From a virus, in IMG/VR virus record IMGVR_UViG_3300021085_000268, positions 1-21,257 of that record: DNA of 21,257 bases, one strand, 5' to 3'. The translations under genes were made by a program, and so were the position numbers. This document shows, piece after piece, positions 12,044 to 16,360 of this stretch. A model generated the notes under the pieces. That model did no database searches. It was not told where the DNA came from and saw only the letters and a program-made list of their open reading frames with translations. How positions within the stretch are numbered: position 1 is the first letter of the stretch; each line of letters begins with the position of its first letter.

Positions 12044-12766
12044 TTATTTTATAGCGATAGCACCTACGAAGAGATGATTCTGCCAGAAGGGTTGGATCTT
12101 AGTTGCATCAAATCCAGCAGTCATGCAAAGAGAGTGCAGTTCATTCCACGTAGAGCACTTCATCATTGAACGCAATTCACGTTCCTTAGATAACAGGTCC
12201 TCTGCTTCGAAGTTCTTAGACTTGTGATCGTAGAACTGAAACGTCATGATTTCCTGAAGACGAGCATCTCTCGCCATAGTCTTCTCTGCGAAAATGAACG
12301 CACCCCCTTTGTTTAAACCAGCATAGATCTTCTTCACCAAGTCACGTCGTGAACGTGGTGGCATGAACTGTAGAGTGAATAGGGAGGTAACAAGAGAGCA
12401 GTTCGCGAATATTGCGTTACGCACATCCATGTTGTGGAAGTCCACATCACCCAGACCTTCAGAATCAATCTGTTTGTGTCGAGTGTTCATGTCGTCAACA
12501 AACCCTTCTGCATACTCGATACCGGAGTAATGTGCCAGAGGAGCGAATCGATTGTTCTGTTTCATCATCTCATAGATAGTCTTACCCGTCGAACAACCAA
12601 TGTCAACAACGTCGGTTAAGTCTTCCACAAAGTATTCGGACAACTTAATCACATCGTGATGTAGGTTGCTGTATCCACGGATAGAGTTCTCGATATGGTT
12701 ATCGAATCCTTCTTCACGGTGAGCAAAACTAAAATCTGGTTTGTGGTAACTTTCTCTATCTTTCAT
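12044..12766 (-). CDS. cmoA: CmoA-like carboxy-S-adenosylmethionine synthase
   Basis: 240 residues, near the 247 of E. coli CmoA. CmoA converts SAM and prephenate into carboxy-SAM (Cx-SAM), used in the host by CmoB for tRNA wobble uridine. Matching blocks in order are SIRGYSN (29-34), the SAM loop DIGCSTG (55-61), DVRNAIFANCSLV, FTLQFMPP (130-137), KIYAGLNKGGAFIFAEK (146-162), KERELRSMM, AGF (217-219) and the end FWQNHLFVGAIAIK. In the KERELR region the Arg expected to hold the Cx-SAM carboxylate aligns one residue off, so product identity is open. It overlaps the cytosine methyltransferase by 11 bases. No CmoB gene is present in this window. A generic SAM methyltransferase is the main alternative. 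Confidence 0.75.
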   Translation of the reverse strand: MKDRESYHKPDFSFAHREEGFDNHIENSIRGYSNLHHDVIKLSEYFVEDLTDVVDIGCSTGKTIYEMMKQNNRFAPLAHYSGIEYAEGFVDDMNTRHKQIDSEGLGDVDFHNMDVRNAIFANCSLVTSLFTLQFMPPRSRRDLVKKIYAGLNKGGAFIFAEKTMARDARLQEIMTFQFYDHKSKNFEAEDLLSKERELRSMMKCSTWNELHSLCMTAGFDATKIQPFWQNHLFVGAIAIK

Positions 12767-13904
12767 TGTACACCTTCAATACGTTTTCATAGACCGACTC
12801 AGCAATCTGTTTCATCATCAATGGTGGGACCATACGACCAATACGTTCTGCCTTCTGGTTCCATTTGCCCGTCAGTTTAAAGTCATCGGGAAGAGACATT
12901 ATACGCTTTAATTCCCCTAGTGTCAACTTTCTTGGTTCACTCCAGTGGAATGCACCAGCAGTTGTGTCCCCATTACCCATTGCAGTGAGAGTAGGTGCAG
13001 GCGCTTCGAGAGACACCCGTTTCAGATTGAAGTGATGACCCTTCGGATGATAGTCACCACCAGTCAAAACTTTATCAGGAAAGGTTGGCATTAGGGATCC
13101 AGTGTCTTTCCAGTATGCAGTTCTCTCAAACTTCTCAGTCAGATACTCGACCTCTTCGTTGTCGTACTCTAGACCGACCAAAACATCCTTGAGTGGAATC
13201 GAAGTTCTCGCTGGTTCTGGAAACAAGTGATTCATGGTCAAGAAGTTTAGACCCACTTCATCCGCAACGTCTTGGCGTACTGCAATAAAGATGACACGGC
13301 TGCGAGTCTGTGACACACCATAGTAACGAGAGTCCATGACTTCGGACACCACCTCGTACCCAATGTTCTCGAACTCATTGAGGATACGGTTGTAGTACTC
13401 TTTTGCCTCACCGATAGTAAGACCCTTTACGTTCTCTGCAATGATGACCTTGGGTTGAATCTCGTTAGCAACACGTAGGAACTCAAAGAACAAGTCTTCG
13501 ATGTTCTCTACAATCTTACCATCACTGTAGGACTTAGTCTGTCCCCACCCGTCAGAGTGTTTACCGTCAGATGAATGAGACAGTTTACCAGCGACCGAAA
13601 ATGCAGAGCACGGAGGCGAACCATCAAGGATATCCAACTCACCCTTCTCCAGACCGACGAGGTCCAGAAAATCTTGACCCGTGAGTTCTTTGATATCATT
13701 AGGGACAATAGGGGTGTCTGGATAGTTTTCTTTGTAGGTGACCCGTGCCTCTTCGACAAACTCATTGATGGCTAGAATGTCTGCGCCTGCAAGACGGTAC
13801 CCAGTGGAAGACCCACCACCCCCTGCGAACGTAGAAACTACTTTAAACTTTTTCTGGGATGCCGCATCATAGACATCTTGCAGATTGTACGGATTGTAAC
13901 TCAT
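12756..13904 (-). CDS. C5-cytosine DNA methyltransferase with altered motif X
   Basis: 382 residues with all main C5-methyltransferase motifs: I (STFAGGGGSSTGYRLAG, 24-40), IV with catalytic Cys99 (DGSPPCSAFS), VI (ENV, 157-159), VIII (QTRSRVIFI, from 199), a target-recognition region at about 211-325, IX (LTLGELKRIMSLPDDF) and X. It transfers a one-carbon or related group from a SAM cofactor to cytosine C5 in DNA. Motif X normally reads IGNAVPP or similar; here it is IGRMVPP, so the conserved Asn is Arg357. That residue lies by the cofactor. With the overlapping CmoA-like gene this suggests Cx-SAM as cofactor and a carboxymethyl product. Ordinary self-methylation against restriction is the simpler alternative. 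Confidence 0.92.
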   Translation of the reverse strand: MSYNPYNLQDVYDAASQKKFKVVSTFAGGGGSSTGYRLAGADILAINEFVEEARVTYKENYPDTPIVPNDIKELTGQDFLDLVGLEKGELDILDGSPPCSAFSVAGKLSHSSDGKHSDGWGQTKSYSDGKIVENIEDLFFEFLRVANEIQPKVIIAENVKGLTIGEAKEYYNRILNEFENIGYEVVSEVMDSRYYGVSQTRSRVIFIAVRQDVADEVGLNFLTMNHLFPEPARTSIPLKDVLVGLEYDNEEVEYLTEKFERTAYWKDTGSLMPTFPDKVLTGGDYHPKGHHFNLKRVSLEAPAPTLTAMGNGDTTAGAFHWSEPRKLTLGELKRIMSLPDDFKLTGKWNQKAERIGRMVPPLMMKQIAESVYENVLKVYNER

Positions 13905-13929
13905 AATATACCTTCACTTGTTAATAGAC

Positions 13930-13958
13930 ATTATACATTATATAGCATTGTCTGTCAA
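13930..13958 (-). promoter_or_regulatory. Sigma-70 promoter (perfect consensus) for the methyltransferase pair
   Basis: TTGACA at 13958-13953, 17-base spacer, TATAAT at 13935-13930. The -35 overlaps the stop codon of the upstream AsnB-like gene, so the methyltransferase and CmoA-like genes can be made apart from it. The leader differs from the usual one and gives GAAGG shortly before the ATG. Confidence 0.85.
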
Positions 13959-14764
13959 GTGATAAACTCGATTAGATCATTTTGCCCAGCACTATCTTTC
14001 CAGTCTCGAACTACATCCATAATGCGTGTTCGACGGTATGGATTTATTTCTGGATCTTGCAATAAGTTTTCAAAGTAATCAGGAATGCCTGCGATGAGTT
14101 GAAGATTCTCATGACCTCGCATCTTCAATTCACGAAACTCAGGGAAAGTATCGTAGAGAGGTTTTTTCTTGCACATGTATTTGTGGTCATACTGCATTGC
14201 CCAGTCACGCATTTTGTCCTCTAGGTATGGCGCAATGAGTTTAATCCCACGTTCTTCGGTTAGTTGTTCGAGTTGACGGACACCAGCAGGATTGTCAGAT
14301 GCGAAATACTTGTTTCTAAAACCATCGAACAACTCTTTGGTGTCACTGAAGTGCATGTGGCACTTCTTGGATGATCCCCACCAACCATCTGCCGCAACAC
14401 CTGAGAGCACCTCATCCTCTTGAATGTATGGCATCATGTGTAGGAAAGGAAAGGTGCACTCAACCTGTGTCTTCTTTATACAGTGGTAGTTATTGACCAG
14501 AGTGAAGAAGTCTTCTTTGAGGTTATCAACCGGAACGTCAATCGCAGTGAAGTCCCACCCGAAGTGTTCCGCAGCAATACGTGCACCGATACTGTCAGAC
14601 GTTTCTTTACCATCAACATAGAATGAGTAACAGGACAGTTTCTTATCAAGACGATGTGCAGAGAACGCAAGACTCAAACTATCCGCTCCAGCAGACAAAA
14701 AACAGCCTACCCTGTTAGAGGTAGACTGTCTGTCTATAATGTCAGTTAGTATCGTGTCGATCAT
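13955..14764 (-). CDS. Asparagine-synthetase-like PP-loop ATPase (no glutaminase domain)
   Basis: 269 residues. The PP-loop FLSAGADS (22-29) that binds ATP and the later block VLSGVAADGWWG (119-130) match the C-terminal synthetase domain of asparagine synthetase B, where the SGGxDS and SGxGxDExFGG motifs sit in the same order. Such domains adenylate a carboxylate, then replace AMP with ammonia or another amine. The N-terminal glutaminase domain of AsnB is absent, so nitrogen must come from free ammonia, another amine or a partner. It lies nine bases after the helicase stop and 50 bases before the methyltransferase. This context suggests it could act on a carboxylated DNA base, but a nucleotide, tRNA or small-molecule substrate is also possible. 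Confidence 0.8.
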   Translation of the reverse strand: MIDTILTDIIDRQSTSNRVGCFLSAGADSLSLAFSAHRLDKKLSCYSFYVDGKETSDSIGARIAAEHFGWDFTAIDVPVDNLKEDFFTLVNNYHCIKKTQVECTFPFLHMMPYIQEDEVLSGVAADGWWGSSKKCHMHFSDTKELFDGFRNKYFASDNPAGVRQLEQLTEERGIKLIAPYLEDKMRDWAMQYDHKYMCKKKPLYDTFPEFRELKMRGHENLQLIAGIPDYFENLLQDPEINPYRRTRIMDVVRDWKDSAGQNDLIEFIT

Positions 14765-14773
14765 AAGTATAGA

Positions 14774-16360
14774 TTATACCACACGTAGGACGGGTTGTAC
14801 AGACTGTTCTTCACCAAAAGTGTAACCACACTCTGGACAAGTCAATACATCACTCTCTAATAGACGAAGGTTGCGTTCGTCTTCTTCGACAGAGTTATAC
14901 TGTTCACGTATCTCATCGAACGCCTTGTTCCACATAACGTTGTCTGGTGCAAAGAACTTGAATGACAAATCATCTAATAGGTCCGCACGATCCTTGTATG
15001 AAAGATTCGGTTGCATAAAGTAGTTTAAGTAACCAAACACGCCTTTGTCCTTATTGAACTTAAGCACATTTTTATTTAGAAGTAATCGCATCAAACGACC
15101 AATCTGCTGTTCACTTACACCGGATACAAAAGACATCTTGAATCCTTTCTGAGGATTACGGAACTTTCTTGTACTAGTTCGCAGCATAACTCCGCATGAG
15201 AGGTTGTTAATACTCATACCAACTTTCGCCTTCTGCTTAACTAACAAGATGGCAGGTAATTCTTTGTCGTCTGCTATAAGTTTCTTAGCATCAGCAGATG
15301 ACTTGAGATTTCTAATCGGAGATAAGGTAGATCGCGAATACTCTCGATTACCATCACACGTCATCTCAACAATCGCACCCTTACCTTCCTGAGGCCAATA
15401 ATCTTTGTGTGCATTCTTCATCATGAGCTCTTGAAAAATGGAAAGGGTACGATCAGTTCGCCATTGTTCATCGGTAGCGTTACTGTTAGCAGCCCAGACT
15501 ACCATACTGCGCTTCAATCCAGTCACGTGTCGTTTCCAGTAAATCTCCTCTAATTGTGTTTCTAACAATGCGCGTACTGTATCTTCATTCAGTGCATCGA
15601 AGGTAGACAATTCCTTATATGGAGAAACAAATCCTGTCAATGATGACTTCTCTTGAGCATTCGCAACTACGTCAAACTTCAACGTACCTCTAGGTTGAAG
15701 ATCTACATAGTCTTCAGTTAATTTAAAGTTATCACATTGGTGTAAAAGTTCAGCTGAGGCAGTTGCAGTCAAACCGAACAAATATGGGGATGATTGCGCA
15801 AATTCTTCATTGAAGATGTATGCAGATGCAGCGTAGTGACCAATCTTAGAACCTTTATCTATCTCATAGTTCTGAGAACATGATGTCAACCAAGTGTGAG
15901 CTTCATCTACGAAAATTGCACACTTATCATAACCAACCATTGATAGATAGCGAGCAAAACGCTTTTTTGCAGTTACGTACATGTATTGATGTGTCGTGAG
16001 GATGATTGTCGGATTACAAGGTGAACCGTGTTCCTCAATGTCTTCAAATAATGTATTGAGTTGCTCTTTACTCGTACCAACCGCATCAACGACATCAAAG
16101 ATTGATTCTAGACGACGACGAGCGTTCATGAACTCATCCATATCGGGGATTTCGGTCAATGGAAAAGAAATGACAAACAATTGCACACCCTGCTTGATGA
16201 GCTCCGGAACAAAGCTGTTTGCTACTGAGAAAGTCTTACCAGTAGACATTTTCGCGTTTATAATATTCATCACATTCAAAGGTAATGAGGTTGGGTCTGC
16301 CTTAAGTAAAGGCATAACCTGATCTACTATAGACTGGTTTGGTGGCGTATAAAATTTCAT
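14774..16360 (-). CDS. DEAH-box SF2 helicase/ATPase
   Basis: 528 residues. Walker A is AKMSTGKTF (36-44, Lys42), motif II is VDEAHTW (DEAH at 152-155), and motif III is LTATAS. A C-terminal helicase lobe carries a Q/R-rich stretch SGVSEQQIGRLMRLL (motif VI-like). The end holds CPECGYTF (508-515), a single CxxC zinc-like pair. It is an NTP-driven DNA or RNA translocase of the type found in several T4-like phages; T4 UvsW and restriction-type helicases belong to the same superfamily. Its own palindrome-bearing promoter starts the operon that runs into the AsnB-like gene. Confidence 0.85.
   Translation of the reverse strand: MKFYTPPNQSIVDQVMPLLKADPTSLPLNVMNIINAKMSTGKTFSVANSFVPELIKQGVQLFVISFPLTEIPDMDEFMNARRRLESIFDVVDAVGTSKEQLNTLFEDIEEHGSPCNPTIILTTHQYMYVTAKKRFARYLSMVGYDKCAIFVDEAHTWLTSCSQNYEIDKGSKIGHYAASAYIFNEEFAQSSPYLFGLTATASAELLHQCDNFKLTEDYVDLQPRGTLKFDVVANAQEKSSLTGFVSPYKELSTFDALNEDTVRALLETQLEEIYWKRHVTGLKRSMVVWAANSNATDEQWRTDRTLSIFQELMMKNAHKDYWPQEGKGAIVEMTCDGNREYSRSTLSPIRNLKSSADAKKLIADDKELPAILLVKQKAKVGMSINNLSCGVMLRTSTRKFRNPQKGFKMSFVSGVSEQQIGRLMRLLLNKNVLKFNKDKGVFGYLNYFMQPNLSYKDRADLLDDLSFKFFAPDNVMWNKAFDEIREQYNSVEEDERNLRLLESDVLTCPECGYTFGEEQSVQPVLRVV

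What the first reader, a model, noticed from the sequence alone, without database searches (positions are those of the whole stretch)
12044..14764. Possible new DNA hypermodification pathway: CmoA-like, C5-methyltransferase and AsnB-like enzymes side by side
Three genes in a row on the minus strand encode a CmoA-family enzyme (family product: carboxy-SAM), a full C5-cytosine methyltransferase overlapping it by 11 bases, and a stand-alone asparagine-synthetase ATPase. Read as a pathway: Cx-SAM is made, the methyltransferase moves carboxymethyl to cytosine C5 in DNA giving 5-carboxymethylcytosine, then the AsnB-like enzyme adenylates the carboxylate and forms an amide with ammonia or another amine. 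Each step fits the known chemistry of its family, and no CmoB partner is present in the window to use Cx-SAM on tRNA. This would be a polymer-level route to a modified cytosine protecting phage DNA from host nucleases. The chain is inference.
Basis: partly seen in the sequence, partly recalled or inferred. Interest (0 to 1): 0.95.

Follow-up and report, generated by a model that had tools for sequence, protein, structure and literature searches.

The report
Phage carboxymethyl-cytosine DNA modification genes
A T4-like phage fragment carries three genes that very probably hang a carboxymethyl group on cytosines in its DNA and cap it with an amine; a relative's version of this pathway was published in December 2025, but this phage carries a ligase of a different type from that of its closest sisters.

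Summary
The proposed pathway is right in outline but not new: Yang et al. (Nat Commun 2025, PMC12783734) showed it biochemically for homologues in Synechococcus phage S-B43 (CmoA makes Cx-SAM, CmoX makes 5-carboxymethylcytosine, CmoY ligates glycine). The window's CmoX best matches their crystal structure 8YF3 (3.1e-153) and keeps the catalytic Cys and the Arg that binds the Cx-SAM carboxylate. The trio is linked across IMG/VR: 77 of 80 loci found with CmoA and 71 of 79 found with CmoY also carry CmoX. No CmoB occurs in nine relatives. Beyond the paper's main text: the window's CmoY lies in a separate 28-member clade lacking Tyr56 and Lys60 (0/28; outside 53/53 and 46/53). In sister phages with 97-98% identical CmoX, CmoY is only 33% identical; the sequence break falls at the CmoY stop codon, which overlaps a perfect promoter. 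So the ligase gene was swapped as a unit, and the amine attached here is unknown. Nothing was tested at the bench.

The parts
12044..12766 (-). CmoA-like Cx-SAM synthase (240 aa), third gene of the unit
   Evidence: 54% identical to S-B43 CmoA, which was shown to make Cx-SAM (PMC12783734)
12756..13904 (-). CmoX, DNA cytosine C5-carboxymethyltransferase (382 aa)
   Evidence: best PDB match 8YF3 (S-B43 CmoX with Cx-SAM), 3.1e-153
12834..12836 (-). codon of CmoX Arg357, equivalent of S-B43 Arg350 (HhaI Asn304), which contacts the Cx-SAM carboxylate
   Evidence: alignment; R in 152 of 155 aligned sequences; role from PMC12783734
13608..13610 (-). codon of CmoX catalytic Cys99 (SPPC motif, equivalent of S-B43 Cys98)
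13955..14764 (-). CmoY-type ATP-dependent amide ligase (269 aa, AsnB synthetase domain without glutaminase)
   Evidence: AF2 model mean pLDDT 92.4; closest solved folds beta-lactam synthetase with product/AMP/PPi (1mc1, E 2.6e-10) and asparagine synthetases
14585..14599 (-). CmoY residues 56-60 (Ser56, Gly60) where other CmoY proteins have Tyr56 and Lys60: mark of a separate ligase clade
   Evidence: tree
13930..13958 (-). perfect sigma70-type promoter TTGACA-17-TATAAT, overlapping the CmoY stop codon, probably driving CmoX-CmoA (inferred)
   Evidence: 12 of 12 matches; kept in sister loci with an unrelated CmoY
12898..12926 (-). second perfect promoter-like site inside CmoX, upstream of CmoA; conserved but also protein-coding, so weaker evidence
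14774..16360 (-). 528 aa ATPase/helicase-like gene directly upstream of CmoY; a neighbour, role in the pathway not indicated
   Evidence: (weak)

Best explanation
The three genes are a CmoA-CmoX-CmoY DNA hypermodification unit. CmoA converts SAM and prephenate to carboxy-SAM. CmoX transfers the carboxymethyl group to C5 of cytosine at a short motif in the phage's replicated DNA. CmoY adenylates the carboxylate with ATP and joins it to a small amine, capping the base so that host restriction enzymes no longer recognise it. Shown by others for homologues: each of the three activities, and HhaI resistance of carboxymethylated DNA. Inferred here from sequence: that the window's enzymes do the same. 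Unknown: the target motif (the recognition domain differs from S-B43's) and the amine (the ligase is of a different clade from S-B43's).
For: Published biochemistry and the 8YF3 crystal structure for the S-B43 homologues. CmoX: 64% identity; Phe26, Glu48, Phe49, Asp70, Cys99 and Arg357 match the residues named for S-B43 CmoX. Arg at this position in 152 of 155 sequences; two of the three exceptions (Methylophilales phage Melnitz-3, Leu; Flavobacterium phage FPSV-S2, Met) belong to phages with no CmoA match in their whole records. Linkage: CmoX present in 77 of 80 loci fetched with CmoA and 71 of 79 fetched with CmoY. No CmoB (PF08003) in 9 relatives of 54-214 kb, while control genomes rang. 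CmoY: AF2 model with pLDDT above 90 over nearly all of residues 1-210, beta-lactam/asparagine synthetase fold; PP-loop Ser24/Asp28/Ser29, Asp126 and Lys200 conserved. The syntenic phage C48C1 lacks the trio in the stretch compared, as expected of an accessory unit.
Against: No chemistry was measured on this phage. The CmoA-like protein scores below NCBI's CmoA equivalog cut-off, and E. coli Arg199, which binds the Cx-SAM carboxylate (PMC3663124), aligns with Glu195 by MAFFT or Arg196 by phmmer; the active S-B43 CmoA has Glu/Lys there, so this is not fatal. CmoX residues 221-280 are only 25-35% identical to S-B43, so the GC motif cannot be carried over. GC dinucleotides are low (0.73 of expected, against 0.85 in C48C1), but Melnitz without CmoA is also low (0.77), so this decides nothing.
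Confidence: 0.88

Rival explanations
1. A narrower version of the best explanation: the ligase attaches glycine exactly as in S-B43, and the residue changes in its clade are neutral or compensated.
For: 44% identity to S-B43 CmoY, E about 2e-61, comparable to the 1e-56 threshold Yang et al. used for their ligase clusters; Lys200, Asp126, Cys95, Lys97, Lys98, Glu102, His218, Asn220 shared.
Against: The window's 28-row clade (SH-aLRT 100) has neither Tyr56 (53/53 outside) nor Lys60 (46/53 outside), has lost the Arg four residues after Lys200 in 27 of 28, and has fixed Ala225 and Pro228.
Confidence: 0.5
2. The C5-methyltransferase is an ordinary SAM-dependent enzyme making 5-methylcytosine, and the CmoA-like gene serves tRNA or another use.
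For: Generic HMMs name it a DNA methylase.
Against: Arg replaces the motif X Asn; S-B43 CmoX with the same Arg accepts only Cx-SAM. No CmoB in relatives. Tight linkage to CmoA and CmoY.
Confidence: 0.05
3. The AsnB-like gene is unrelated to DNA modification (for example amino acid or surface metabolism) and sits there by chance.
For: A sizeable share of CmoX+CmoA loci have no detectable CmoY nearby (37 of 179 loci show only CmoX then CmoA; contigs of 70 and 144 kb have none).
Against: 71 of 79 loci found with CmoY alone have CmoX near it, in several gene orders; S-B43 CmoY acts on 5cxmC DNA.
Confidence: 0.05

Closest known systems
CmoA-CmoX-CmoY system of Synechococcus phage S-B43 (Yang et al. 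2025, PMC12783734)
   Same: All three proteins are homologous (54%, 64%, 44% identity); catalytic and Cx-SAM-binding residues of CmoX conserved; genes adjacent and co-oriented; no CmoB.
   Different: Gene order CmoY-CmoX-CmoA instead of CmoA-CmoY-CmoX; recognition domain of CmoX diverged; CmoY of a different clade lacking Tyr56/Lys60; a promoter between CmoY and CmoX.
Synechococcus phage S-CRM01 CmoA-CmoX pair
   Same: CmoA 53%, CmoX 62% identical and adjacent.
   Different: No CmoY detected in the 24.7 kb stretch examined.
Engineered M.MpeI N374K carboxymethyltransferase
   Same: Basic residue in place of the motif X Asn allows use of Cx-SAM (as cited in PMC12783734).
   Different: Engineered Lys in a CG-specific enzyme; here a natural Arg.
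Beta-lactam synthetase / asparagine synthetase B
   Same: Fold and ATP-pyrophosphatase catalytic residues of the ligase.
   Different: No N-terminal glutaminase domain; the carboxylate substrate is inferred to be modified DNA.

Membership tests
CmoX (DNA cytosine C5-carboxymethyltransferase) | C5-MTase fold with SPPC catalytic motif | tested here: met
   SPPC, Cys99
CmoX (DNA cytosine C5-carboxymethyltransferase) | Arg in place of the motif X Asn (S-B43 Arg350) | tested here: met
   Arg357
CmoX (DNA cytosine C5-carboxymethyltransferase) | Adenine/ribose contacts Phe25, Glu47, Phe48, Asp69 | tested here: met
   F26, E48, F49, D70 in the window
CmoX (DNA cytosine C5-carboxymethyltransferase) | 5cxmC formation from Cx-SAM | not testable with these tools
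   needs enzyme assay / LC-MS
CmoA (Cx-SAM synthase) | Homology over the whole length to CmoA and SAM-binding residues | tested here: met
   Tyr39, Asp62, Gly64, Ser66, Phe137 equivalents kept (Asn90 and Asn132 are not, nor in S-B43 CmoA)
CmoA (Cx-SAM synthase) | Arg199 binding the carboxylate | tested here: inconclusive
   aligned to Glu195 (MAFFT) or Arg196 (phmmer); active S-B43 CmoA has Glu/Lys there
CmoA (Cx-SAM synthase) | NCBI equivalog cut-off TIGR00740 (193.3 bits), a model of cellular CmoA | tested here: not met
   106.7 bits; described here as a phage CmoA-like protein, not as cellular CmoA
CmoY (5cxmC amide ligase) | Single AsnB synthetase domain next to CmoX and CmoA | tested here: met
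CmoY (5cxmC amide ligase) | Residues shared by the S-B43 (glycine) clade and most other CmoY, Tyr56 and Lys60 | tested here: not met
   Ser56 and Gly60 in the window; that these residues bind glycine is an inference, the paper's supplementary figure could not be read. So it is filed as CmoY-type, not as a glycine ligase
CmoA/CmoB tRNA cmo5U pathway | CmoB present | tested here: not met
   none in 9 relatives; the window itself is a fragment

The most novel reading that the evidence does not exclude
The carboxymethyl handle is conserved while the capping ligase is exchanged between sister phages by gene-sized recombination at a conserved promoter, so that nearly identical phages carry chemically different DNA. 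The window's ligase clade would attach an amine other than glycine, giving a DNA base not yet described.
Probability: 0.4. Interest if true: 0.65.

Novelty: new member of a known kind. Interest (0 to 1): 0.42.

Why it matters
It extends a very recently described DNA modification to another T4-like phage lineage and shows that its last step is modular. If swapped ligases add different amines, phages could change the outer chemistry of their DNA by exchanging one gene, which would bear directly on how they escape restriction systems. The sister set (almost identical CmoX, unrelated ligases) is a natural comparison for finding what decides the amine, and the ligases could be used to attach chosen groups to DNA.

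Tried and rejected
Adenine carboxymethylation in Alexandravirus AD1 (CmoA and CmoY near a gene annotated 'DNA methyltransferase' that does not align as a C5 enzyme): rejected, because a C5-MTase with the Arg is encoded elsewhere in that genome and is interrupted by an intein. An unknown 266 aa gene in the CmoY slot of 22 loci as a divergent ligase: rejected, no match to the CmoY profile; it looks like a GT-A glycosyltransferase, but the model is weak (pLDDT 59.6; fold matches E about 1e-4). GC-dinucleotide depletion as evidence for the target motif: indecisive. The paper's supplement on the glycine pocket could not be read with these tools, and no coordinates of the AF2 model were available to place residues 56 and 60. 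Literature on beta-lactam synthetase or asparagine synthetase pocket residues was not found in the library.

Full report
Observation. Transcribed leftwards on the minus strand they run CmoY-like (14764-13955), C5-MTase (13904-12756), CmoA-like (12766-12044), with an 11-base overlap between the last two. Families: PF00733 1.5e-12, PF00145 3.9e-53, phrog_4752 9.9e-57. The surroundings are those of a T4-like phage: head closure, DNA end protector, tail tube, baseplate hub, gp32-like SSB. The nearest phage record by DNA is Phage C48C1, family Kyanoviridae. The window is a 21,257-base IMG/VR record.

The pathway is published. Yang et al., Nat Commun 2025 Dec 7, PMC12783734, showed for Synechococcus phage S-B43 that CmoA makes Cx-SAM, that CmoX makes 5-carboxymethylcytosine at GC motifs using a C5-MTase fold whose motif X Asn is replaced by Arg350, and that CmoY, an AsnB homologue, ligates glycine; the phage's DNA contains the glycyl base.

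The window belongs to this system. Its CmoX best matches the S-B43 crystal structure 8YF3 (3.1e-153; next best HaeIII 1.7e-20). All named contacts are kept: F26, E48, F49, D70, C99 and R357. The Arg is present in 152 of 155 sequences. The exceptions are Melnitz-3 (Leu) and Flavobacterium FPSV-S2 (Met), phages without any CmoA match in the phage collection, and Staphylococcus vB-SscS-F1 (Gly), which does have CmoA and CmoY and is unexplained. Linkage was measured from two independent queries: 77 of 80 loci fetched with CmoA and 71 of 79 fetched with CmoY also carry CmoX. Several contigs are near-duplicates, and the misses include contigs that end there; one CmoY locus without CmoX beside it (L172) has CmoA and a C5-MTase elsewhere on the contig. 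CmoB is absent from nine relatives of 54-214 kb, including S-B43 and S-CRM01.

CmoA. Most SAM-binding residues of E. coli CmoA are kept, but Arg199, the residue reported to bind the carboxylate (PMC3663124), is not securely aligned (Glu195 or Arg196). S-B43 CmoA, about ten times faster than E. coli CmoA (kcat 2.33 against 0.23 per second), shows the same pattern.

CmoY. The AF2 model is confident (pLDDT 92.4) and closest to beta-lactam synthetase with product, AMP and PPi (1mc1, E 2.6e-10) and asparagine synthetases. It has no glutaminase domain, so a free amine rather than glutamine-derived ammonia is expected (inference). In a tree of 85 ligases the window falls in a 28-row clade (SH-aLRT 100) apart from S-B43's 13-row clade. 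Tyr56 is invariant outside the clade (53 of 53) and Lys60 nearly so (46 of 53); inside the clade neither occurs in any of 28 rows, and the window has Ser and Gly. Four divergent rows (two phage ligases and two glutaminase-bearing enzymes) were left out of this count and also lack them. The Arg four residues after the catalytic Lys200 is Tyr204 in the window and kept in only 1 of 28; Ala225 and Pro228 are fixed in all 28 where others mostly have Ser and Asp. Residues 56-60 start the helix after the second strand, at the edge of the sheet where PP-loop enzymes have their active site (secondary structure; the placement is inference). A different amine is therefore plausible but not shown.

Ligase swap. 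Sister loci L021, L022, L023, L028, L030, L031 and L033 share CmoX at 97-98% and CmoA at 92-97% with the window, and in L021 and L030 many flanking genes are 77-99% identical, yet their CmoY is 33% identical and lies in another clade. Nucleotide identity falls from about 0.9 to about 0.5 at window 13,950, the CmoY stop codon, which overlaps a perfect TTGACA-17-TATAAT promoter. L006 shows the complementary pattern: CmoY 94% (about 0.92 in DNA, over CmoY only), CmoX 89%, CmoA 70%. A 137 kb sister contig (L030) has no second CmoY. The ligase gene was exchanged as a unit while CmoX and CmoA stayed. Phage C48C1 has the flanks without the trio in the stretch compared.

Other contexts. Serine hydroxymethyltransferase, which makes glycine, lies beside CmoX/CmoY in L057, L059, L060, L062, L063 and L066; suggestive of amine supply, but one small group of related contigs. 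A glycosyltransferase-like gene fills the CmoY slot in 22 loci. Serine hydroxymethyltransferase is not mentioned in the paper's main text, and glycosylation only in general terms (the supplement could not be read).

Verdict. A real, correctly read gene set; a new member of a known system, with a ligase of a distinct clade acquired by recombination. The most novel reading left open is that this clade attaches another amine.

Noticed in passing
L184:487-2616 (Dickeya phage vB_DsoM_AD1, NC_048054.1 29986-32115): CmoX of Alexandravirus AD1 (motif X ERLGRI, with the Arg) carries an intein inserted at the catalytic SPPC cysteine; intein C-terminal and Hint domains match. A ParB-like gene lies just upstream.
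   Followed up: partly
L057, L059, L060, L062, L063, L066, one to three genes upstream of CmoX: Serine hydroxymethyltransferase gene beside CmoX/CmoY, which could supply glycine for the ligase.
   Followed up: partly
L038:4008-4802 and 21 further loci, directly upstream of CmoX: Conserved 266 aa gene without Pfam match, probably a GT-A glycosyltransferase, in the slot where CmoY sits elsewhere.
   Followed up: partly
L003:7461-8468 (Staphylococcus phage vB-SscS-F1): CmoA and CmoY next to a C5-MTase whose motif X has Gly instead of Arg; how it would bind Cx-SAM is unclear.
   Followed up: no
L115, L116, L117, L121 (contigs of 26-77 kb): CmoY and CmoX without any CmoA on the contig; Cx-SAM may come from the host, or CmoA lies outside the fragment.
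   Followed up: partly
L177:6876-9172, L178:4060-6356: Two CmoX copies in tandem in one cluster, perhaps two target motifs.
   Followed up: no
L018:4995-5645 (Moraxella phage Mcat8): CmoX with the Arg followed by a small methyltransferase-fold gene that the window's CmoA does not detect; possibly a very divergent CmoA.
   Followed up: no
L021:314-1879: 521 aa gene with an HNH endonuclease domain directly upstream of the different CmoY in the sister phages; the window has a different, helicase-like gene there.
   Followed up: no
L014:7496-8008 and related loci, directly upstream of CmoY: Cytidylyltransferase-like gene (PF01467) next to ligases of the window's clade in several contigs; could be linked to the amine or be an unrelated NAD enzyme.
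   Followed up: no
window 19194, 18467, 17311, 13958, 12926, 6345 (minus strand): Six perfect TTGACA-(16-18)-TATAAT promoters, all on the minus strand.
   Followed up: partly
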